NCBI GenBank assembly: GCA_016929465.1
Contig: JAFGIT010000074.1
Span: 1-11,376, forward strand
Reading direction: 5' to 3'
Source: JAFGIT01 sp016929465 [NCBI: Candidatus Coatesbacteria bacterium]
GTDB lineage: Bacteria > B130-G9
DNA: 11,376 nucleotides
Both the position numbers and the translations under genes were made by a program. Below are positions 1,362-11,376 of the stretch, piece after piece (position 1 is the stretch's first letter; every line of letters starts with the position of its first letter). The notes beneath the pieces are model-generated. The model saw only the letters and a list, made by a program, of their open reading frames with translations. It was not told the DNA's origin and ran no database searches.

Positions 1362-1379
1362 TTAGCTGGAGGAATTGTC
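1340..1379 (-). terminator. hairpin overlapping the stop codon of the nuclease gene
   Basis: ATTCCTCCA (1343-1351) pairs perfectly with TGGAGGAAT (1367-1375) around a 15-base loop, and GAC/GTC extend the stem past a one-base bulge. The TAA of the nuclease gene (1362-1364) is in the loop. There is no T-run after the stem on either strand, so a classical intrinsic terminator is not shown. It may be a 3' mRNA-stabilising hairpin at the end of the restriction-modification transcript. Confidence 0.35.
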
Positions 1380-1991
1380 AGGATGCTCCAGTCCCAATAT
1401 CTTCGCCACGAATTGGGTCCGGGCATAAAATGCCCTGCTTCTACTCCCGTGTCCTGGACCTTTGGTTCTCGGCTGCACAAATACTCCCATCTTGCCGGTC
1501 AAGCAGTCAAAGCCCCGACTGGCGATACACTCCCTGGTCTCTTCGTAGTCCCTCTTAACCTGCTCATAGAGGACCGGGTCGGCGAGGTCGAATGCAGCCA
1601 CCGCAACTAAAAGCGATCTCTCTTCACGCTGTGACTCAAAAAGGCGAGCGCACACCACTGCCCTCTGTAATTTTGAGAGTAGATGACTCTCTTCGAAGGG
1701 CGTCTGTTTGACGTTATAGGGATCGATCATCGTGATTGCCATGGTCTCTTTGACTGCAATTCTGCCACTTTTGAGTCGCTTGAGTGGTACTATCTTCAGC
1801 TCCCATGAGCCAAAATTGGGAGATTTCGCCGAGTTGATCGGAAGCCCGAGATAGCGCTCGAGAACGTGGCCGGCCCATCCCTTGTTCTTCTTGTCGCCCT
1901 TCCAGATAGTCACCTCATATTTGGATGCAAGGGGAACGAGGTCGGTTCCCTCCAGTTGCTTCAACTTCTCTATTGCTTGCTGCCGTTCCAT
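1362..1991 (-). CDS. MutH/Sau3AI-family restriction endonuclease
   Basis: A 209-residue single-domain nuclease that follows the order of E. coli MutH: GWAGHVLERYLGL (38-50, E45 corresponding to MutH E56), SPNFGSWELKIVPL (57-70, with the E-x-K pair E64/K66), KETMAI (81-86), SHLLSKLQRAVV (102-113), a region like the MutH YLQIRPK segment (GVFVQPRTK, 169-177) and AFYARTQFVAKIL (187-199). MutH nicks, and Sau3AI cuts, at GATC with this fold. Where MutH has catalytic D70 this protein has N59, either a subfamily trait or a loss. Sau3AI has two such domains; this protein has one, the size of MutH. It starts at ATG 1991, 17 bases after the methyltransferase stop, so the pair is almost certainly co-transcribed and forms a type II-like system. 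A mismatch-repair MutH is less likely without mutS or mutL nearby. Confidence 0.8.
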   Translation of the reverse strand: MERQQAIEKLKQLEGTDLVPLASKYEVTIWKGDKKNKGWAGHVLERYLGLPINSAKSPNFGSWELKIVPLKRLKSGRIAVKETMAITMIDPYNVKQTPFEESHLLSKLQRAVVCARLFESQREERSLLVAVAAFDLADPVLYEQVKRDYEETRECIASRGFDCLTGKMGVFVQPRTKGPGHGSRSRAFYARTQFVAKILGLEHPDNSSS

Positions 1992-2008
1992 CCGCTATCC
2001 AAGCTCAG

Positions 2009-2911
2009 CTAGAAGTTCAAGGTCGCTTGTCTATTTGCTATAGCGTGCTTCAATCTCTTCTCAGATAGTTTGATGTATTCTGATTCCAGTTCGACCCCCA
2101 AGAACCTCCTACCGCAGTTGATGGCTGCGACACCCGTGGTTGAGCTTCCTGCAAATGGGTCGAACACCAGATCGCCCTCGTCGGTGCAAGATAGAATTAT
2201 CCTCTGCAACAAAGCGACTGGCTTCTGAGTAGGATGCTTGCCAAAAGCCTTTTCGTCACCATTTGGCGCTGTGAACGTCCAGACAGACTTCATCTGCTTC
2301 CCATGATTCATTTCACGCATGGCGTGATAGTTGAAGCGATGTTTAGCCTTCTCGTTCTTTGCGGCCCAGATGATCGTCTCGGTAGCATGAGTGAAGTAAC
2401 GGCAAGATAAATTTGGGGGCGGATTGGGCTTAATCCAGGTTAGATCGTTAAGTATTTTCATGCCCAATTGCTGCATAGCAAAGCCGGCAGAGTGGATGAC
2501 ATGGTGCGTCCCCGAGATCCACATGGTTCCATTTGGCTTGAGTAGATCGCGGCATTGGGAAATCCATGCGGTATTGAATTCGTGGTTGAGATCCGGTCCT
2601 TTGGATTTGTCCCATTTTCCCTTATCCACATTTACCATCTTGCCTGCATGGCACGTGATCCCGCCATTCGAGAGGAAATACGGCGGATCGGCGAAGATCA
2701 TATCGAATAGACCCTTAGGATTCGCGCAGATTTGCGAGTCCATGAACTCGATACAATTGGCCTGATAGAGCCATACCCCAATTTCATCACTCTTGAACAC
2801 GCACTTGTTTGGCGAGTATTCGGTGCTTTGCAATGCCATTGGAGGCTGAGGACCAACCTCGATCTGTGAATTATGGGATCTCGCCATCGACGCCCGGAGT
2901 ATCTTTGCCAT
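2009..2911 (-). CDS. adenine-N6 DNA methyltransferase, M.DpnA-like (GATC expected)
   Basis: A 300-residue beta-class amino-methyltransferase: the catalytic motif comes first (MIFADPPYFLSNGG, DPPY at 75-78) and the SAM-binding motif last (FDPFAGSSTTG, 250-260), with HPTQKP at 226-231. VDKGKWDK (95-102), LKPNGTMWISGT, PNLSCRYFTHATETI (166-180) and KQMKSVW match the DpnA protein of the Streptococcus pneumoniae DpnII system from memory. DpnA methylates the adenine of GATC and can act on single-stranded DNA. The role here would be to protect host DNA from the MutH-like nuclease encoded just downstream. The start is uncertain: ATG 2911 has no clear ribosome site, and ATG 2839 would remove 24 residues that DpnA lacks. 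It is the first gene of the pair, about 110 bases after the DUF2442 gene, on the same strand. Confidence 0.88.
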   Translation of the reverse strand: MAKILRASMARSHNSQIEVGPQPPMALQSTEYSPNKCVFKSDEIGVWLYQANCIEFMDSQICANPKGLFDMIFADPPYFLSNGGITCHAGKMVNVDKGKWDKSKGPDLNHEFNTAWISQCRDLLKPNGTMWISGTHHVIHSAGFAMQQLGMKILNDLTWIKPNPPPNLSCRYFTHATETIIWAAKNEKAKHRFNYHAMREMNHGKQMKSVWTFTAPNGDEKAFGKHPTQKPVALLQRIILSCTDEGDLVFDPFAGSSTTGVAAINCGRRFLGVELESEYIKLSEKRLKHAIANRQATLNF

Positions 2912-3021: not shown

Positions 3022-3258
3022 CTAATGGCTGCCGCGGAGCAGCCCGGCCACGCTCAAATCCTCATCGAGGTCCGGCCAGTGTATCCCATCGCCATCGCCA
3101 AGCAGCTCGTAATTCGCAAGCTGCTCCTTTGACGCCCCTGCCAAGCGCGGGAACCACACCAGCGGAACCGATATCGTCCGCCCGTCCACAAGCGACACGA
3201 TCAGCTCGTCGTCGGTGAAGCGAATCTCTTGCGCCGATGCGCGTGCCTGAGTGTTCAT
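3022..3258 (-). CDS. DUF2442 family protein
   Basis: A 78-residue protein with the whole DUF2442 pattern: FTDDELIVSLVDGRTISVPL (14-33), WFPRLAGAS, a central charged helix, and the C-terminal signature GIHWPDLDEDLSVAGLLRG (58-76). The family is of unknown biochemistry. It is often found beside DUF4160 genes, in pairs suspected to be toxin-antitoxin modules, and some members carry an extra DNA-binding domain. No DUF4160 gene is present here. It is the last of a run of small same-strand genes, 45 bases after the BrnA/CopG-like gene. A G-rich stretch (GGGGGCC) upstream of ATG 3258 is the only ribosome-site candidate. Confidence 0.85.
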   Translation of the reverse strand: MNTQARASAQEIRFTDDELIVSLVDGRTISVPLVWFPRLAGASKEQLANYELLGDGDGIHWPDLDEDLSVAGLLRGSH

Positions 3259-3303: not shown

Positions 3304-3513
3304 CTAATCAAGCCGAGATTTCTCAAGCCTCCTACCGGAGCTCTCTCTTGAGGTCCGCACCCTAGAGATATCCACCTCAAATTCCGCAGGGAAAAGAAAC
3401 TCCTCGAAGTCCGTAATGCTGTGCTCGTCCCAGAATTCCCCAGCCTGGTCTTCCGACTCGAACTCGGCGGGAAGTGTGGTGACAAAATCCGGCTTCACTG
3501 GTTTGTTATTCAA
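3304..3513 (-). CDS. BrnA/CopG-like antitoxin, possibly C-terminally decayed
   Basis: LPAEFESEDQAGEFWDEHSITDFEEFL is the typical N-terminal segment of BrnA/CopG_antitoxin proteins (F-x-S-E-x-x-x-x-F-W-x-x-H-x-x-x-D). These bind a cognate toxin and their own promoter through a C-terminal ribbon-helix-helix. Here the part after EFEVDI is short, basic and unlike a ribbon-helix-helix (SRVRTSRESSGRRLEK), so the DNA-binding end may be lost. The start is not fixed. TTG 3513 sits 13 bases after the HicB-like stop and gives 69 residues; ATG 3543 would overlap the HicB-like gene and give 79. A still longer version from ATG 3618 reads through the HicB gene in another frame and is unlikely. No BrnT toxin gene is adjacent. 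Confidence 0.6.
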   Translation of the reverse strand: MNNKPVKPDFVTTLPAEFESEDQAGEFWDEHSITDFEEFLFPAEFEVDISRVRTSRESSGRRLEKSRLD

Positions 3514-3526
3514 CTCATCTGCGGAA

Positions 3527-3742
3527 TTAGGCCACAGTGACATCCACGTATTCCATCTCTGATGTCGGCTGTGGAATGGGTGCGCCGTCTTGCTTGAGCC
3601 CTTCGATATGGAATTCAATAGCCTCCTTTATGAGCCGAACGACATCTTCCCTCGTCTCGTCCGCAGCAGCACATACGGGGAGGTCAGGAACATAGGCCCC
3701 CCAGCTCGTCGATTCCCTCTCGATCACGATCATGTATTTCAT
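3527..3742 (-). CDS. HicB-like antitoxin domain protein
   Basis: A 71-residue protein of the short HicB-like type: a beta hairpin (YMIVIERESTSWGAYVPDLP), the family's alanine-rich turn (VCAAADET), an alpha helix (REDVVRLIKEAIEFHIEGLK, 31-50) and the closing GAPIPQPTSE followed by a final strand. HicB neutralises the mRNA-cleaving HicA toxin, but HicA would be a short gene beside it and none is seen. It lacks the C-terminal DNA-binding extension of autoregulating HicB proteins. ATG 3742 is well supported by AGGGAAG five bases upstream. The gene lies 13 bases after the DUF2283 stop and is followed at once by the BrnA/CopG-like gene, so the set is likely one transcript. Confidence 0.85.
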   Translation of the reverse strand: MKYMIVIERESTSWGAYVPDLPVCAAADETREDVVRLIKEAIEFHIEGLKQDGAPIPQPTSEMEYVDVTVA

Positions 3743-4361: not shown

Positions 4362-4808
4362 TCACAAAAGAAACCGTTCATCGAATTCAATTCCAGCCTC
4401 AATCAGAAGCTGCCTCAGCTCATCCGCAAACGACACCCTCCTATGATGCGCCTTTTCGGCGTTTATATAATCGACTAGCGCATCTTTATCACGTCTCGAA
4501 TGCGTGAAGGCGCCGTATCCATCCTGCCAGCCAATGAAATCGGGGAATATGCGCTCATCTTTGATCCAGCGCGATGCCTTTGTTTTGACGTCTCTGACGA
4601 GGTCTGCCAGCCGTTGGCATGGGTGAAGAGTCGTGAGAATGTGCACGTGATCCTCGACCGCCCCAATTCGATGAAGGTGGCAATCTCTGTTCTTGATGAG
4701 CCCCCAGATGTATCGGTAGAGAGGCTCACGGTTGGATCCGCAGAGGGAAGGTGTCCTGTTCTTCGTCGAAAAGACAATATGATATAGAATCTGTGTAAAT
4801 GTGGACAT
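4362..4808 (-). mobile_element. REP-associated tyrosine transposase (RAYT), Y1/IS200-like
   Basis: A 148-residue HUH/Y1 transposase. It opens YHIVFSTKNRTP, carries the metal-binding His-x-His at H54-V55-H56 (EDHVHIL) and has the catalytic tyrosine Y98 in WQDGYGAFTHS. It ends with the family's GIEFDERFLL. LADLVRDVKTKASRWI fits the helix between the two motifs. All catalytic parts and a full length are present, so the gene looks intact. RAYTs cut and move short REP hairpins using single-stranded DNA; they are usually domesticated, one copy per site and flanked by their hairpins, which is the arrangement here. No Shine-Dalgarno precedes ATG 4808, consistent with low expression. A mobile IS200 is the alternative, but paired mirror-image hairpin arrays favour RAYT. 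Confidence 0.9.
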
Positions 4809-4833
4809 TATTTCATTGCATTATCTGATTGTA

Positions 4834-4923
4834 CGACCCCTTCAGGGCCGTTTTTGTTCGTTGTCGCATTTCGATCCGTAGGCTCCCGCCTACGGCTACC
4901 ATTGTCAAGCCCTTTCAGGGCTT
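4834..4923 (-). repeat. right hairpin array of the RAYT element (C'-B'-A')
   Basis: This is a mirror image of the left array. C' (4834-4850) is the reverse complement of C with one base changed. B' (4876-4895) has the identical 8-bp stem with loop TCCC. A' is AAGCCC/GGGCTT, loop TTTCA (4907-4923). The A'-B' gap is 11 bases against 12 on the left, and the bases next to B/B' (GTAGCC on the relevant strand) are also shared. The A and A' stems differ in sequence but keep the CCCTGAAAGGG core. Confidence 0.85.
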
Positions 4924-4932
4924 TAGAAGCAC

Positions 4933-4952
4933 CACCATGTTGAAACATGGTG
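4933..4952. repeat. extra TGAA-loop hairpin beside the RAYT element
   Basis: CACCATGT (4933-4940) and ACATGGTG (4945-4952) form a perfect 8-bp stem closed by the tetraloop TGAA. The loop matches the TGAA core of hairpins A and C, but there is no counterpart on the left side. It lies nine bases beyond the right array. Confidence 0.6.
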
Positions 4953-5030
4953 TTAATATTATTGGAGGCTGAGATTTCGACCGCATTGAAATATCGCCTA
5001 AAGAGGTGCGGCGAATCGGCCCGCGGCGTC

Positions 5031-5058
5031 TTGATCTAATCGGCGCTCCCCCTATTAT
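5031..5058 (+). promoter_or_regulatory. probable ftcD promoter
   Basis: TTGATC (5031-5036) and TATTAT (5053-5058) are 16 bases apart, matching sigma70 boxes at 4/6 and 5/6. This would start a leader of about 50 bases. An AAGAGG ribosome site lies about six bases before the ftcD ATG at 5116. The inverted repeat at 5033-5064 overlaps both boxes. Confidence 0.5.
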
Positions 5059-5064
5059 TAGATC
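5033..5064. promoter_or_regulatory. inverted repeat over the ftcD promoter, candidate operator
   Basis: GATCTAAT (5033-5040) and ATTAGATC (5057-5064) form a perfect 8-bp dyad with a 16-base centre, so half-site centres are 24 bases apart. One arm overlaps the -35 box and the other the -10 box. It could be the binding site of a dimeric or tetrameric repressor. Each arm also contains GATC, the site expected for the nearby methyltransferase. Confidence 0.45.
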
Positions 5065-5115
5065 GGACGTTCTAGGCGGACCAGAATTACCGACCATTAA
5101 GATAAGAGGTATGAG

Positions 5116-6804
5116 ATGTTCAAACTTGTTGAGTGTGTTCCGAATTTTAGCGAGGGCCGGGATAGGGCGGTCATCGATGAGATAACTGCTGAGATATCCG
5201 CCACGGCGGACGTGAAGCTGCTCGATGTCGATCCGGGGGCGGATACGAACCGCACGGTCGTGACGTTCATCGGCACGCCGGACGCTTGCGTCGAGGCCGC
5301 CTTCAAGGCGATAAAAAAGGCGGGTGAGCTCATCGACATGACCAAGCACAAGGGCGCGCATGGCCGCATGGGCGCGACCGACGTTTGTCCCTTCGTGCCG
5401 GTCGCAGGGGTGACGATGGAGGATTGCGCCGAGCTTGCGAAGCGACTCGGAAAGCGTGTCGCGGAGGAGCTCAAAATCCCGGTCTATCTCTACGAAGAGG
5501 CGGCACAGAAGCCGGAGCGACAGAACCTCGCCAACTGCCGCAAGGGCGAATACGAGGGGCTGCCCGAGAAGTTGAAGGACCCCGAGTGGGCACCCGACTT
5601 CGGCGAGCCCGTCTTCAACGCGAAGTCCGGGCTGACGACGATTGGCGCCCGTGAGTTCCTCATCGCCTACAACGTCAACCTGAACACTCGCGACGCCAAG
5701 AAAGCGAAGGACATCGCGATGACGATCCGCGAGGCGGGCCGCGCGAAGCGCGATGATGACGGCGAAATCGTCCGCGATGACGACGGCAAGGCAATCAAGG
5801 AACAGGGCCGTCTGACCTTCTGCAAAGGCACCGGCTGGTATATCGACGAGTATGCAATGGCCCAGATTTCGATGAACCTCACGAACTACAAGGTGACACC
5901 GCACCACATCGCGGTAGAAGTGTGCCGCGAAGAGGCGCAGAAGCGCGGGCTGGTCGTGACTGGCACTGAGCTAGTTGGTCTCATCCCCAAGGCAGCGATG
6001 CTGATGGCCGGGAAATACTACCTCGAGAAGCAGGGCAAGTGCCCCGGTCAGCCCGAGAAGGAGCTGATCCGTGTCGCTGCGCAGTCGCTCGGCATGAGCG
6101 AGGTTGCGCCATTTAATCCGAAGGAGAAGATCATCGAGTACCAGTTCGCGGACGACGCGGGCTCGCTCCGCGCGATGACGCTCTGCGACTTTGCGGATGA
6201 GCTCTCGACCGATTCGCCGGCACCTGGCGGAGGCAGTGTGGCCGCGCTCGCCGGCTCGATGTGCGCTTCACTTGCCGCGATGGTCGCGAATCTGACGCAC
6301 GGCAAGAAGGGCTACGAGGACAAGAACGACGAAATGGCCGAGGTCGCTCTCGCCGGGCAGCCGATGAAGGATGAGTTTCTCCAGCTGATCGACACCGACG
6401 CCAAGGCCTTCGACAACGTCATGGCCAAGATGCGCATGAAGAAAAAGACACCCGAGGAGAAAGCTGCGCGTAACGCCGCGGTCCAGGAGGCCACGAAGGA
6501 GGCGACGCTGGTCCCGCTGTCGGTGCTGAAAAAGTCCCTCGATGCGCTGAAGCTTGCGAAGGTGGTTGCCGAGAAGGGGAATGTGAACTCGCTAAGTGAC
6601 GCTGGTGTCTCCGCGATGATGGGCTATGCCGCTGCGGAGGGCGCCTATATGAACGTGGTCATCAACCTGGCGGGCATCGAGGACAAGGAATTCGTCGAGA
6701 GGACGAAGGCTGAGGCGGACGAGCTGCTGGCCTCCTGCAAGGAGCTGTCGGATTCGATCCGCAAGGAAGTCATGGACAGGCTGATAGCCAATATCAAGGT
6801 GTGA
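5116..6804 (+). CDS. ftcD: bifunctional glutamate formiminotransferase / formiminotetrahydrofolate cyclodeaminase
   Basis: A 562-residue full-length FtcD. It moves the formimino group from N-formimino-L-glutamate to tetrahydrofolate, then cyclises and deaminates it to 5,10-methenyl-THF and ammonia, joining histidine breakdown to one-carbon metabolism. The formiminotransferase N- and C-subdomains span about 1-330 (KLVECVPNFSEGRD at the start; HKGAHGRMGATD with H82, the catalytic histidine in the porcine enzyme; GWYIDEYAMAQISMNLTNY at 240-258). The cyclodeaminase spans about 351-555 (SPAPGGGSVAALAGSMCASLA, an Asp-rich helix near D430, NSLSDAGVSAMMGYAA). A charged piece (208-230) between strands carries the doubled RDDDG motif. 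ATG 5116 follows AAGAGG. No hutH, hutU or hutI is in the window. The gene looks more GC-rich in codon choice than its neighbours. Confidence 0.96.
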   Translation: MFKLVECVPNFSEGRDRAVIDEITAEISATADVKLLDVDPGADTNRTVVTFIGTPDACVEAAFKAIKKAGELIDMTKHKGAHGRMGATDVCPFVPVAGVTMEDCAELAKRLGKRVAEELKIPVYLYEEAAQKPERQNLANCRKGEYEGLPEKLKDPEWAPDFGEPVFNAKSGLTTIGAREFLIAYNVNLNTRDAKKAKDIAMTIREAGRAKRDDDGEIVRDDDGKAIKEQGRLTFCKGTGWYIDEYAMAQISMNLTNYKVTPHHIAVEVCREEAQKRGLVVTGTELVGLIPKAAMLMAGKYYLEKQGKCPGQPEKELIRVAAQSLGMSEVAPFNPKEKIIEYQFADDAGSLRAMTLCDFADELSTDSPAPGGGSVAALAGSMCASLAAMVANLTHGKKGYEDKNDEMAEVALAGQPMKDEFLQLIDTDAKAFDNVMAKMRMKKKTPEEKAARNAAVQEATKEATLVPLSVLKKSLDALKLAKVVAEKGNVNSLSDAGVSAMMGYAAAEGAYMNVVINLAGIEDKEFVERTKAEADELLASCKELSDSIRKEVMDRLIANIKV

Positions 6805-8599: not shown

Positions 8600-10042
8600 A
8601 TGACGATTGAGGTCCAGACCCGAGTCCCTCCCCACGACAGAGAGGCGGAGCGGCTCGTAATAGGCGGTCTTCTGATTGATAACGGGCTTATTCCGGTAGT
8701 CGGCGAGAGTATAACCGAGAAGAGCTTCGACTTTGCTGCGCATAGAGATATATACGCAGCGATTCTCGATCTCTTCGAAAGAGACTTCCCGGTCGATCTC
8801 GTTACTCTGAAGGACGAGCTGACACGTCGTCAGAAGCTCGACCGTGTGGGCGGCATGGCCTATATATCGGGGCTCCTGGCGGACGTGTCCGCAATAACCA
8901 ACGTTCGACATTATGCGAGTATAATCAGCGACAAGTTCCTTCTTCGGAGGCTCATCACAGCCTGCAACCGGATCATAGACCGCTGCTATGACGGTGCCCA
9001 GGACGCGATGGACGCGCTCGAGTATGCCGAGAGATCGGTATCCGATGTGGCGCAGAACAGGTCTCGCACATCCGTCGTTCCTCTGGGTGATATCGTCGAG
9101 GATAATCTCGACACCATCGAGAAGCTCGCGACCGGCGAGAAGAAGGTCTCTGGCGTCCCGACCGGCTTCAAGGACCTGGACGCGCTGATCCTCGGATTTC
9201 ACCCGGGAGATGAGATAATAATCGGCTCGCGACCGAGCGTCGGAAAGACTTCGCTCTGCCTGAACATGGCCCAAAATATGACCAAGCGGGATAAGGTCCC
9301 CATTCTCATCTTCACCATTGAGATGTCAAAGGAGGAGATCACAAATCGCCTGATCTCCTCGGTTGCCGGAGTTTCGCTTTTGAAGATAAGGAGCGGCAAG
9401 CTCTCTCACAAAGATCGGGAAGCGATCAAAGCAGCCTGCGACGAAATCGGCGAGCTGCCAATCTTTATAGATGATTCCGCGACGCTTACGCCGCTTCAGA
9501 TGCGATCTCGGGCCAAGATGCTCAAGGCCGAGCACAACATCGGCGTTGTCATGATCGACTACCTTCAGCTGATGCAGTATCACCGGCGAACCGACAACCG
9601 TCAGCAGGAGGTCACCGCGATTTCCAGGTCCTTGAAGGCAATGGCCCGCGAATTGGATGTCGCAGTTGTTGCCTTTTCCCAGCTGAGCCGCGACGTAACT
9701 AAGCGCCGGGAAAACAACATTCCGCAGTTAGCGGACCTCCGGGAGTCGGGTTCCCTGGAGCAGGACGCTGACGTGGTGCTCTTCCTTCACGACCCGTCGA
9801 GGTCTGTCTATAAGAAGAAAGAGGAAGGTCAGAAGAGGCCAGAAGCGGTAGAAATAGAGGTCATCGTTGCCAAGCAGCGAAATGGCCCGGTTGGCTCGAT
9901 CAAGCTGCTATTCCAGACGAAATTCGCTACCTTCAGGAGCATATCGAACGAACCGGCCCCGCCTTGGGATGCCGGAGATGATTCAGATGGCCCTGACTGG
10001 ATTTCCCAGGATGATGATGACGACGATTTGGACTACGAATAG
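8600..10042 (+). CDS. dnaB: replicative DNA helicase DnaB
   Basis: A 480-residue complete DnaB, the ring-shaped 5'-3' helicase at the replication fork. The N-terminal domain is about 8-115 (PPHDREAERLVIGGLLID; GGMAYISGLLADV). A linker and then the RecA-like motor follow: Walker A GSRPSVGKT (209-217), catalytic glutamate in FTIEMS (E241), Walker B VVMIDYLQL (316-324), AFSQLSRDVTKR, LADLRESGSLEQDADVVLFL (377-396) and the C-terminal KQRNGPVG (425-432) with the likely arginine finger R427. The last 25 residues are a very acidic tail (DDSDGPDW, DDDDDDLDYE) after a proline segment, longer and more acidic than usual. There is no rplI upstream, unlike many bacteria. It starts at ATG 8600 with a weak ribosome site, so translation may depend on the pentapeptide gene just before it. 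Confidence 0.97.
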   Translation: MTIEVQTRVPPHDREAERLVIGGLLIDNGLIPVVGESITEKSFDFAAHRDIYAAILDLFERDFPVDLVTLKDELTRRQKLDRVGGMAYISGLLADVSAITNVRHYASIISDKFLLRRLITACNRIIDRCYDGAQDAMDALEYAERSVSDVAQNRSRTSVVPLGDIVEDNLDTIEKLATGEKKVSGVPTGFKDLDALILGFHPGDEIIIGSRPSVGKTSLCLNMAQNMTKRDKVPILIFTIEMSKEEITNRLISSVAGVSLLKIRSGKLSHKDREAIKAACDEIGELPIFIDDSATLTPLQMRSRAKMLKAEHNIGVVMIDYLQLMQYHRRTDNRQQEVTAISRSLKAMARELDVAVVAFSQLSRDVTKRRENNIPQLADLRESGSLEQDADVVLFLHDPSRSVYKKKEEGQKRPEAVEIEVIVAKQRNGPVGSIKLLFQTKFATFRSISNEPAPPWDAGDDSDGPDWISQDDDDDDLDYE

Positions 10043-10061: not shown

Positions 10062-11376
10062 CTATCCTAAATCGGATACTCTCTGAATCGCGGATATGGC
10101 GATCGCTCTCGGCCTTCCGGTCGAGCTATCGATCCCCCTGATGTATCCTTCGTTCTTCGGCCCGATGATCTCGGACACCACCAGTTTTCTGAAGCGCACA
10201 GACGAAGTTATCGGTGAAGTGTATTCGATCACAACCGGTTTGCCCAAGGCTTGTGCTTTGCCCAGATCATCCATTATAGCTTTTTGAGACCTGCCCTGGA
10301 GCCGGAGATGCCGCTTCTCGCCTTTATGCTTCATCGATATCGGCTCACGGTTCAAGATTAGGTCCGAGAGCTCGCTCGCGATGAAACTTGCGCGAAGCAT
10401 TAGCTTGTAGGGGATGTGGCTCGAGAGGGCCTCCTCATCAACGAGCAGTTTCTTCAGTGCCGGGAATTCCGATTGAATCAAATCGAGTACCTCCGACATA
10501 CCGAGCGCTGCGGCAAATACAGCAACGCTTTGCTGTAAAGGCAGAGTAAACGCCTGCACTTCCGCCCCCAGTCTCTTCAGGTCCTCGTCGATCTCCGGAA
10601 GATATCCCTCGCGCTTGAGGTCCTTATAGATGGTGCCGGAGTTCTCCCGGTCAATGATCGCGGTCTTCTTCCCTACTCTCTCCTGGACCCCGGCAGTGAT
10701 TTTGCCCGAAGCCATGATCTCGGTCATAAGGAATTCGTCCGCAGTCTCGAGGATGACCGCATCCCTAATCCTGATGTTTCCGAACTTGGCGGACCACTCC
10801 TTTATCGAGTACTCGACGTTCTGAGGAATTCCAGCAGTAGAGTGCTTCTTCAGAAAGGATATTATTGTCTTCGCCTCGATGCCGATCTGCAACGCCCTCG
10901 AGATCGAGTGCTTGCTTATCTGAAACTTGAATACGGCATCAAGTTCCGTCCGGACAGCGAATTTGCTCAAGAACAACAGGGCGGAGCGGTTGAAATCCCG
11001 ATGCGCGGTGATCTCGAAGTCAGGATGAAGAATGAACCGCTGTTTCGCGCCGCTCGGGCCAGGCTGAAAGGCATCGGTCAAGAAAGCCCGACCTCGCTCC
11101 GAGATCGCGAAATGGTTCAGCTCGCCGTTGTCATCCAAGCGCAGCCTTGTCAGGCCGAGCCAATACAGTGGATCGTAAATATAGGCACGCAGCAGAGACC
11201 CCTCCAAGTTGAGCCAGAAGCTCTTCTCACTCTCCTCGCTGTGATGATGACGCCCTGCTCCGGTAGCCAGCAACGTGATCTTCCAATTGTAAGGATTAGA
11301 CGGGGGTCTCAGAAGGCCGGGCTTCTTGACGAACATGTACTCGACGAACGAATCGAACTCGTGCCACTCATCTACA
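10062..11376 (-). CDS. XPB/Ssl2 N-terminal-like protein with WYL-like C-terminus, 5' end outside the window
   Basis: The frame is open from the window edge (VDEWHEFDSFVEYM precedes ATG 11336), so the N-terminus is missing and the ATG is probably internal. Counted from that ATG, about 20-110 is a winged-helix-like region (GLTRLRLDDNGELNHFAISERGRAFL). ILHPDFEITAHRDFNRSALLFLSKFAVRTELDAVFKFQISKHSISRAL (about 102-149), split by family convention into a strand and helix pair, is characteristic of the helicase XPB/Ssl2 N-terminal domain family. Residues about 365-423 (GKPVVIEYT to AISAIQRV) resemble a WYL domain (I-x-Y, R-x-x-x-P, G-R-x-R-x-I-x-x-x-x-I). Bacterial proteins of this type usually lack helicase motor motifs and their role is unknown; WYL domains sense ligands or nucleic acids. 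It converges on dnaB with 19 bases between stops. Confidence 0.8.
   Translation of the reverse strand, partial: VDEWHEFDSFVEYMFVKKPGLLRPPSNPYNWKITLLATGAGRHHHSEESEKSFWLNLEGSLLRAYIYDPLYWLGLTRLRLDDNGELNHFAISERGRAFLTDAFQPGPSGAKQRFILHPDFEITAHRDFNRSALLFLSKFAVRTELDAVFKFQISKHSISRALQIGIEAKTIISFLKKHSTAGIPQNVEYSIKEWSAKFGNIRIRDAVILETADEFLMTEIMASGKITAGVQERVGKKTAIIDRENSGTIYKDLKREGYLPEIDEDLKRLGAEVQAFTLPLQQSVAVFAAALGMSEVLDLIQSEFPALKKLLVDEEALSSHIPYKLMLRASFIASELSDLILNREPISMKHKGEKRHLRLQGRSQKAIMDDLGKAQALGKPVVIEYTSPITSSVRFRKLVVSEIIGPKNEGYIRGIDSSTGRPRAIAISAIQRVSDLG

What the first reader, a model, noticed from the sequence alone, without database searches (positions are those of the whole stretch)
1362..2911. GATC system pairing an M.DpnA-type methyltransferase with a single MutH-like nuclease
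The methyltransferase shares long stretches with DpnA (adenine-N6, GATC), while the nuclease is of the MutH/Sau3AI fold, not the DpnII nuclease family. Sau3AI itself has two MutH-like domains and pairs with a cytosine methyltransferase. A one-domain, MutH-sized enzyme coupled to a DpnA-type methylase could be a nicking or dimerising restriction enzyme, and DpnA's single-strand activity might protect incoming DNA. The shared GATC expectation comes from family knowledge; the pairing itself is seen in the sequence.
Basis: partly seen in the sequence, partly recalled or inferred. Interest (0 to 1): 0.65.

Follow-up and report, generated by a model that had tools for sequence, protein, structure and literature searches.

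The report
GATC restriction pair with MutH-like nuclease
Two adjacent bacterial genes look like a DNA self-defence pair, one marking the sequence GATC and one cutting it when unmarked; the cutter is a small relative of a DNA-repair enzyme and carries an unusual change in its cutting site that most of the relatives examined share.

Summary
Window 2009-2911(-) encodes a beta-class adenine methyltransferase, 58% identical over 219 aa to the DpnA-type enzyme of pSRQ700, grouping with DpnA-type enzymes and apart from CcrM. Seventeen bases on, 1362-1991(-) encodes a 209-aa single-domain MutH-fold nuclease. The pairing is conserved: 83 of 85 loci examined have a DpnA- and/or DpnM-type methyltransferase gene within 2.5 kb. 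Residues that MutH needs at GATC (K48, R184, Y212) are kept; one Sau3AI-like enzyme compared lacks two of them. A Type II GATC system is the best reading, not mismatch repair.

New here: the catalytic Asp (MutH D70; D70A is inactive) is Asn in the window and in 78 of 83 aligned rows, Asp in the other 5, which are scattered on the tree; the other catalytic residues do not vary in these rows. Partners are modular: DpnA-type, DpnM-type or both, in one locus with a DpnII-type nuclease; an unnamed ~180-aa protein recurs. DpnA's single-strand role finds no support here. Cutting, nicking and methylation are untested.

The parts
2009..2911 (-). DpnA-type (beta-class) adenine DNA methyltransferase, 300 aa
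   Evidence: PF01555 E 3.1e-59; 58% over 219 aa to the pSRQ700 DpnA-type enzyme; tree
2678..2689 (-). methyltransferase DPPY motif, residues 75-78
   Evidence: residue number; coordinates computed from the gene end
2132..2164 (-). methyltransferase FDPFAGSSTTG motif, residues 250-260
   Evidence: residue number; coordinates computed from the gene end
1992..2008 (-). 17-base gap between the two genes, consistent with one transcript (inference)
   Evidence: in 53 of 85 loci the DpnA-type gene is directly upstream, same strand, within 60 bases, overlaps included
1362..1991 (-). single-domain MutH-fold nuclease, 209 aa
   Evidence: PF02976 43.6 bits; model pLDDT 90.7; MutH Z 19.4
1857..1859 (-). 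E45 = MutH E56, 83 of 83 rows
1815..1817 (-). N59 (AAT) at the place of the catalytic Asp (MutH D70); N in 78 and D in 5 of 83 rows
1794..1802 (-). E64-L-K66 = MutH E77-L-K79; E and K in 83 of 83 rows
1671..1673 (-). K107 = MutH K116, 83 of 83 rows
1461..1469 (-). R175-T-K177 = MutH R184-P-K186, GATC readout loop; R and K in 83 of 83 rows
   Evidence: role of R184 from PMC10940147 passages
1425..1427 (-). Y189 = MutH Y212, 83 of 83 rows; S in the one Sau3AI-like enzyme compared
   Evidence: role of Y212 from PMC3848065 section 11 and PMC10940147 passages

Best explanation
A Type II restriction-modification system for GATC. The DpnA-type enzyme methylates adenine in GATC of the cell's own double-stranded DNA (inferred). 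The single-domain MutH-fold nuclease recognises GATC with the same side chains as MutH, senses adenine methylation through the tyrosine that matches MutH Y212, and cuts unmethylated GATC (inferred from conserved residues). With one active site it most likely nicks one strand at a time, by rebinding as BcnI and MvaI do or by a transient dimer, giving a double-strand break when both strands are unmethylated (inferred). Its active site has Asn in place of the usual metal-binding Asp (shown in sequence), probably as a metal ligand that keeps the enzyme active but perhaps slow (inferred).
For: Pair conserved in 83 of 85 loci from many phyla. In a 76-row tree the window methyltransferase falls in a set of 57 rows (98/89) with all 4 enzymes taken from DpnII operons, the 4 CcrM rows outside. 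The nuclease keeps MutH E56, E77, K79, K116, R184, K186 and Y212 in 83 of 83 rows; these lie outside the patterns that found the 80 genome loci. K48 and E91 are also 83 of 83 but lie inside those patterns. In MutH, K48A, R184A and Y212S abolished function at GATC in a base-editing assay (PMC10940147, passages). The one Sau3AI-like enzyme compared, next to a cytosine methyltransferase, has A and S at the R184 and Y212 places, which fits m6A sensing in this family. Position 59 is N or D only in 83 rows, and the 5 D rows need 5 changes on the tree, at least 4 forced by well supported branches, which fits a working ligand better than decay. In C. coli a SMRT-detected GATC motif was matched to a dpnA-type gene (PMC4687069, passages).
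Against: MutH D70A is inactive (PMC10940147), and Asn here may weaken metal binding. GATC is only mildly rare in a 149,250-base sample of the genome (O/E 0.78; CATG 0.79, GTAC 0.67), so there is no clear mark of restriction. L044 carries the Asn-type nuclease beside DpnM-, DpnII- and DpnA-type genes, where a second GATC cutter looks redundant. The C. coli genome also lists a dpnM-type gene, so that precedent is not clean. The genome has 15 PF01555 matches, the window's included, of which 8 were compared with DpnA, so another enzyme may do the protecting. No activity has been measured.
Confidence: 0.72

Rival explanations
1. The nuclease is catalytically dead or nearly so because of Asn for Asp, and works as a GATC-binding protein (for example a regulator of the methyltransferase or a roadblock).
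For: MutH D70A is inactive (PMC10940147, passages); Asn in 78 of 83 rows.
Against: E45, E64, K66 and K107 are the same in 83 of 83 rows, and position 59 is only N or D although S, T, K, H, I and Y are also one base away from the AAT/AAC codons found; Asp recurs in 5 scattered rows. A dead enzyme should drift.
Confidence: 0.13
2. A nicking module that acts on hemimethylated GATC, giving strand discrimination after replication without MutL, with the methyltransferase supplying the mark.
For: MutH cuts hemimethylated GATC about ten times faster than unmethylated (PMC3848065 section 11); one active site; MutH-like nucleases occur together with a DpnII-type gene in L044 and in 6 of 6 examined loci of a second family; an unnamed accessory protein recurs.
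Against: The window genome's MutL has a DQHA-type stretch, so a MutH would not be needed (meaning of the motif recalled); patchy spread over phyla and presence on viral contigs fit a mobile defence pair.
Confidence: 0.1
3. Ordinary mismatch-repair MutH that happens to lie next to a methyltransferase gene.
For: Same fold and GATC residues; it is the only PF02976 match in the genome.
Against: Far below the NCBIfam MutH cut-offs; 83 of 85 loci have a linked methyltransferase gene; E. coli K-12 mutH has no DNA methyltransferase gene in the 10 kb read; MutL of this genome looks endonuclease-type.
Confidence: 0.02
4. The pair is a restriction system, but for another motif than GATC.
For: Specificity is inferred only; beta-class methyltransferases vary (recalled); two Poribacteria loci (L039, L048) pair the nuclease with a divergent methyltransferase that falls on the CcrM side, a join flagged as possible long-branch error.
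Against: Both halves point to GATC independently.
Confidence: 0.03

Closest known systems
DpnII / LlaDCHI-type restriction system (DpnM, DpnA, DpnII)
   Same: DpnA-type methyltransferase, 58% over 219 aa to the pSRQ700 enzyme; GATC expected. The system name LlaDCHI is recalled, not from a call.
   Different: No DpnM and no DpnII-family nuclease in the window, and no PF04556 match in the genome; the nuclease is MutH-fold
Sau3AI family restriction system
   Same: MutH-like fold (Z 18.6 to the N-terminal domain); GATC target of Sau3AI from PMC4390886 passage
   Different: Two MutH-like domains there (PMC1189080 passage) and a cytosine methyltransferase in the case read; one domain and an adenine methyltransferase here; Asn for Asp; R and Y kept where the Sau3AI-like enzyme compared has A and S
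MutH mismatch-repair nicking enzyme
   Same: Fold, size, GATC readout residues, E56/E77/K79/K116
   Different: D70 is Asn; 4 not 6 residues between that place and the ExK Glu; linked to a methyltransferase gene; below MutH model cut-offs
MvaI / BcnI monomeric restriction enzymes
   Same: PF15515 28.3 bits against a cut-off of 25, over residues 31-72; four-residue spacing as stated for BcnI (PMC4081073, passage); Z 7.6 and 7.5
   Different: PF15515 match covers 42 of 227 profile positions; fold match far weaker than to MutH, and Z under 8 may mean only a common arrangement; BcnI target CC|SGG
Katablepharid mitochondrial Kat-MutH system (PMC8099122, passages)
   Same: MutH-type nuclease paired with a methyltransferase, GATC predicted by its authors
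   Different: Cytosine methyltransferase; its authors found no methylation at GATC and no toxicity of the nuclease

Membership tests
Pfam PF02976 (MutH) | Score above the curated cut-off | tested here: met
   43.6 bits against 23
Pfam PF02976 (MutH) | MutH fold | tested here: met
   Model pLDDT 90.7; MutH Z 19.4 over 197 residues
Canonical DEK (D-xn-E-x-K) nuclease active site | Asp, Glu and Lys all present | tested here: not met
   Glu and Lys present; Asp is Asn in the window and in 78 of 83 rows
Pfam PF15515 (MvaI_BcnI) | Score above the curated cut-off over the domain | tested here: inconclusive
   28.3 bits against 25, but only profile positions 14-55 of 227 matched
Mismatch-repair MutH (NF003458, TIGR02248) | Score above equivalog cut-off | tested here: not met
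   63.6 against 243 and 44.6 against 229.9
Sau3AI family (NF040973) | Score above cut-off and two domains | tested here: not met
   51.4 against 300; 209 aa, one domain
Sau3AI family (NF040973) | Cytosine methyltransferase partner | tested here: not met
   Partner is PF01555, DpnA-type
M.DpnA-type methyltransferases | Groups with DpnA enzymes of DpnII operons, not with CcrM | tested here: met
   Set of 57 rows, 98/89, holding the window and the 4 DpnII-operon rows; 4 CcrM rows outside; tree rooted at the midpoint for drawing only
M.DpnA-type methyltransferases | m6A at GATC, activity on single strands | not testable with these tools
   needs methylation data or an assay
CcrM (NF050803) | Score above cut-off | tested here: not met
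   232.1 against 830
DpnII system | DpnM and DpnII-family nuclease present | tested here: not met
   None in the window; PF04556 in 0 of 1 genome; two D12 methyltransferases elsewhere, 27% and 26% to DpnM over 200 and 179 aa; the genome is 86% complete
Type II restriction-modification system | Conserved nuclease-methyltransferase gene pair | tested here: met
   83 of 85 loci
Type II restriction-modification system | Nuclease cuts, methyltransferase protects the same site | not testable with these tools
   needs an assay

The most novel reading that the evidence does not exclude
These are mobile, MutL-independent MutH modules: a nuclease with an Asn-x4-Glu-x-Lys active site, slowed by the Asp-to-Asn swap, nicks hemimethylated or unmethylated GATC, in some loci under control of a dedicated unnamed ~180-aa partner and alongside DpnII, serving more than plain restriction.
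Probability: 0.12. Interest if true: 0.8.

Novelty: new variant of a known kind. Interest (0 to 1): 0.52.

Why it matters
It shows a widespread GATC system that joins the DpnA-type adenine methyltransferase to a single MutH domain. If active, the nuclease would be a natural PD-(D/E)xK enzyme that works with Asn in place of the metal-binding Asp, with natural Asp variants at hand for direct comparison, so a textbook point about these active sites becomes testable. It also offers a possible source for MutH (inference), and puts MutH-fold nucleases with GATC readout in cyanobacteria, in which a 2015 paper, holding MutH to be confined to gamma-proteobacteria, postulated an analogue (PMC4390886, passages).

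Tried and rejected
GATC avoidance: O/E 0.78 in 149,250 bases (contigs C1-C20 and the window, of 423 contigs), fourth lowest of 16 palindromes, no clear signal. Plasmids: two partial matches to the nuclease, both annotated Sau3AI family. Phage records: one match, an unannotated 595-kb phage. Phylum search: of 4 genomes held, only the window's own has the nuclease. PHROGs: no hit to the nuclease. PADLOC: nuclease hits only REase_II PDLC03553, 49.8 bits, profile length 527. Structure of the ~180-aa protein: 0 Foldseek matches at E 0.001, best VIA Z 4.1. Literature: no paper found on a DpnA- or DpnM-type methyltransferase paired with a single-domain MutH nuclease in the searches (open-licence full text; I saw listings, and passages of the papers cited); REBASE is not held, so absence from print is not shown.

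Ascertainment limits: one search found 202 relatives and kept the best 80; 122 were not seen, and more distant ones could hold more Asp. Its two patterns span residues 33-41 and 80-87, so the invariance of K37, G38, W39, G41 and K81-T87 (E82 included) is partly built in. The three viral loci came from other patterns, one of which covers Y189. The linkage count took methyltransferase matches of at least 110 aa (DpnA-type) or 200 aa (DpnM-type); some partners are cut by contig ends or in pieces (L055, L077), some on the other strand (L042, L086). Rows left out of the 83-row alignment: L029, L065 and L069 (frames under 180 aa); L039 gives two rows; L006 (fragment) was left out of all counts. Two results against a tight link: L089, an Asp member, has no methyltransferase match in the stretch read, and the viral relative L135 of the ~180-aa protein has no match to the methyltransferases or MutH in its 6.5 kb. 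Many loci are metagenome bins, so host names and single bases may be wrong.

Full report
What is there. The finding's limits are exactly those of two minus-strand ORFs, 2009-2911 (300 aa) and 1362-1991 (209 aa), 17 bases apart, methyltransferase first. The window is one contig (C195) of an unnamed 3.19-Mb genome in 423 contigs (86.3% complete, 3.5% contamination). Near it lie a DUF2442 gene, a HicB-like antitoxin and an IS200-type transposase, surroundings in which mobile defence genes are often found (inference).

The methyltransferase. PF01555, E 3.1e-59. It is 58% identical over 219 aa to the DpnA-type enzyme of Lactococcus plasmid pSRQ700, which stands between a DpnM-type gene and a nuclease gene of the DpnII type (the names DpnM and DpnII for the neighbours are recalled, the record says DNA adenine methylase and type II restriction endonuclease). 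In a tree of 76 rows it lies in a set of 57 (98/89) that also holds the four enzymes taken from such operons, while the four CcrM rows fall outside (CcrM rows were named from similarity, two of them from their RNase HII neighbour). The CcrM model scores 232.1 bits against a cut-off of 830. GATC is therefore the expected target. In pneumococcus DpnM methylates double strands and DpnA single strands (PMC3573125, abstract and passages). Here no DpnM lies at the locus. If the nuclease cuts, this methyltransferase has to act on double strands, or another one in the genome does. The genome has 15 PF01555 matches, of which 8 were compared with DpnA; one, on contig C416, is 52% like the window enzyme and has no MutH-like or DpnII-type gene in the 3.7 kb read. 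Two D12 enzymes are 27% and 26% like DpnM. In Campylobacter coli a SMRT-detected GATC motif was matched to a dpnA-type gene, though that genome also lists a dpnM-type gene (PMC4687069, passages), so it is a hint, not proof, of chromosomal methylation by this type.

The nuclease. PF02976, 43.6 bits against a cut-off of 23; PF15515 (MvaI_BcnI) also passes, 28.3 against 25, over the active-site stretch only. The model (pLDDT 90.7) matches MutH best (Z 19.4, 3.0 A over 197 residues), then the N-terminal part of Sau3AI (18.6), the C-terminal part (13.7), then BcnI and MvaI (7.6, 7.5). It is one domain, and the only PF02976 match in the genome.

The family. A scan of one genome per species found 202 relatives, of which the best 80 were kept; with the window, three viral contigs and one phage record that makes 85 loci. 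A DpnA-type gene alone lies within 2.5 kb in 60, a DpnM-type gene alone in 20, both in 2, both plus a DpnII-type nuclease in 1 (L044), neither in 2 (L029, cut by the contig end, and L089). In 53 of 85 the DpnA-type gene is directly upstream on the same strand within 60 bases. Record titles name Bacillota, Cyanobacteriota, Planctomycetota, Verrucomicrobiota, Chloroflexota, Aquificota and others, mostly metagenome bins. The pair is thus a conserved, exchangeable unit.

Target readout. In an alignment of 83 family rows with E. coli MutH, the places of MutH K48, E56, E77, K79, E91, K116, R184, K186 and Y212 hold the same residue in 83 of 83. In MutH, K48A, R184A and Y212S abolished activity at GATC in a base-editing assay, and D70A is an inactive form (PMC10940147, passages); Y212 matters for sensing methylation (PMC3848065, section 11). 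The one Sau3AI-like enzyme compared, whose neighbour is a cytosine methyltransferase, has A and S at the R184 and Y212 places. So the nuclease side, on its own, points to GATC with sensitivity to adenine methylation. K48 and E91 fall inside the search patterns, so their invariance is partly built in; the others do not, except that one pattern used for the three viral loci covers Y189.

The odd active site. The catalytic Asp (MutH D70) is Asn in the window and in 78 of 83 rows, Asp in 5 (L025, L045, L071, L086, L089), no other residue. The Asp rows need five changes on the tree, at least four forced by well supported branches; shuffled labels give 4.9, so Asp is simply scattered. Codons are AAT/AAC or GAT/GAC. 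The spacing to ExK is four residues, as stated for BcnI (PMC4081073, passage). Either Asn serves as a metal ligand, or the enzyme is dead. The sameness of E45, E64, K66 and K107, and the lack of any third residue at position 59, favour the first, but nothing has been assayed, and the 122 relatives not seen may differ.

Mismatch repair. The MutH models fail by a wide margin, the genome's MutL has a DQHAAHERIYYD stretch close to the endonuclease motif DQHA(x)2E(x)4E (motif recalled, its last E is D here), and E. coli K-12 mutH has no DNA methyltransferase gene in the 10 kb read. An ordinary repair MutH is very unlikely.

Beyond the window. A ~180-aa protein lies near the pair in 9 of the 85 loci (4 of them the seeds of the model, one broken), two more weakly, including the window's close relatives L013, L014 and L016 but not the window or its genome. 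It has no Pfam match above cut-off (L004, L073, L088) and no NCBIfam or PADLOC match (L013, L073). Following it into viral contigs gave 4 loci: one is L004's contig, one (L135) shows no methyltransferase or MutH match in 6.5 kb, and two, L137 and L138, carry DpnM-, DpnA- and DpnII-type genes and a second kind of single-domain MutH-like gene, PF02976 22.4 bits, just under the cut-off of 23. A scan with that protein found 7 loci, two of them those same contigs; 6 were examined (L140 was not), and all 6 carry DpnM-, DpnA- and DpnII-type matches and a canonical Asp, 5 of 6 the ~180-aa protein too. Two GATC nucleases in one locus is hard to explain as plain restriction and is the main reason to keep the nicking-module rival open.

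Verdict. A new variant of a known kind, made more interesting by the Asn active site.

Noticed in passing
L073:2113-2649, L078:3455-3988, L088:3452-4000, L004:576-1121, L016:2511-3104, L080:4615-5151, L013:2530-3069, L037:4619-5164, L014:2442-3032 (broken): Unnamed ~180-aa protein near the methyltransferase-nuclease pair; model pLDDT 85.1, no convincing fold match.
   Followed up: partly
L139, L141, L142, L143, L144, L145: Second single-domain MutH-like family with canonical Asp, in 6 of 6 examined loci with DpnM-, DpnA- and DpnII-type matches, 5 of 6 with the ~180-aa protein.
   Followed up: partly
L044:860-4558: DpnM-, DpnII- and DpnA-type genes followed by the Asn-type MutH-like nuclease: two GATC-type nucleases in one gene cluster.
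   Followed up: partly
L039:4001-4627 and 4725-5354: Two MutH-like nuclease genes in tandem, both Asn-type, beside a divergent methyltransferase.
   Followed up: no
L031:3667-4041, L050:1229-1564, L052:3480-3809, L088:3085-3411, L059:3670-3861: ~110-aa ORF with a DGQHRL motif (in those printed) and weak ParB-like PHROG matches, upstream of the nuclease.
   Followed up: partly
L053:4620-5483, L061:1944-2750: In these DpnM-type loci a further methyltransferase-like gene follows the nuclease; L061's matches PF01555.
   Followed up: no
L007 (595-kb phage record LR756511) and L005: A distant Asn-type relative pairs with a D12 (Dam-like) methyltransferase gene in a very large phage and a viral contig.
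   Followed up: partly
genome contig C416, L097:1447-2319: A second DpnA-like methyltransferase gene in the same genome with no MutH-like or DpnII-type nuclease in the 3.7 kb read.
   Followed up: partly
window 3022-3258, 3304-3618, 3527-3742, 4362-4808: DUF2442 protein, a CopG-like match below cut-off, HicB-like antitoxin and IS200-type transposase near the pair.
   Followed up: no
window 10062-11336: Protein with a Helicase_C_3 / XPB-like region, convergent with the gene at 8600-10042, which reads like dnaB (recalled from its sequence, not scanned).
   Followed up: no
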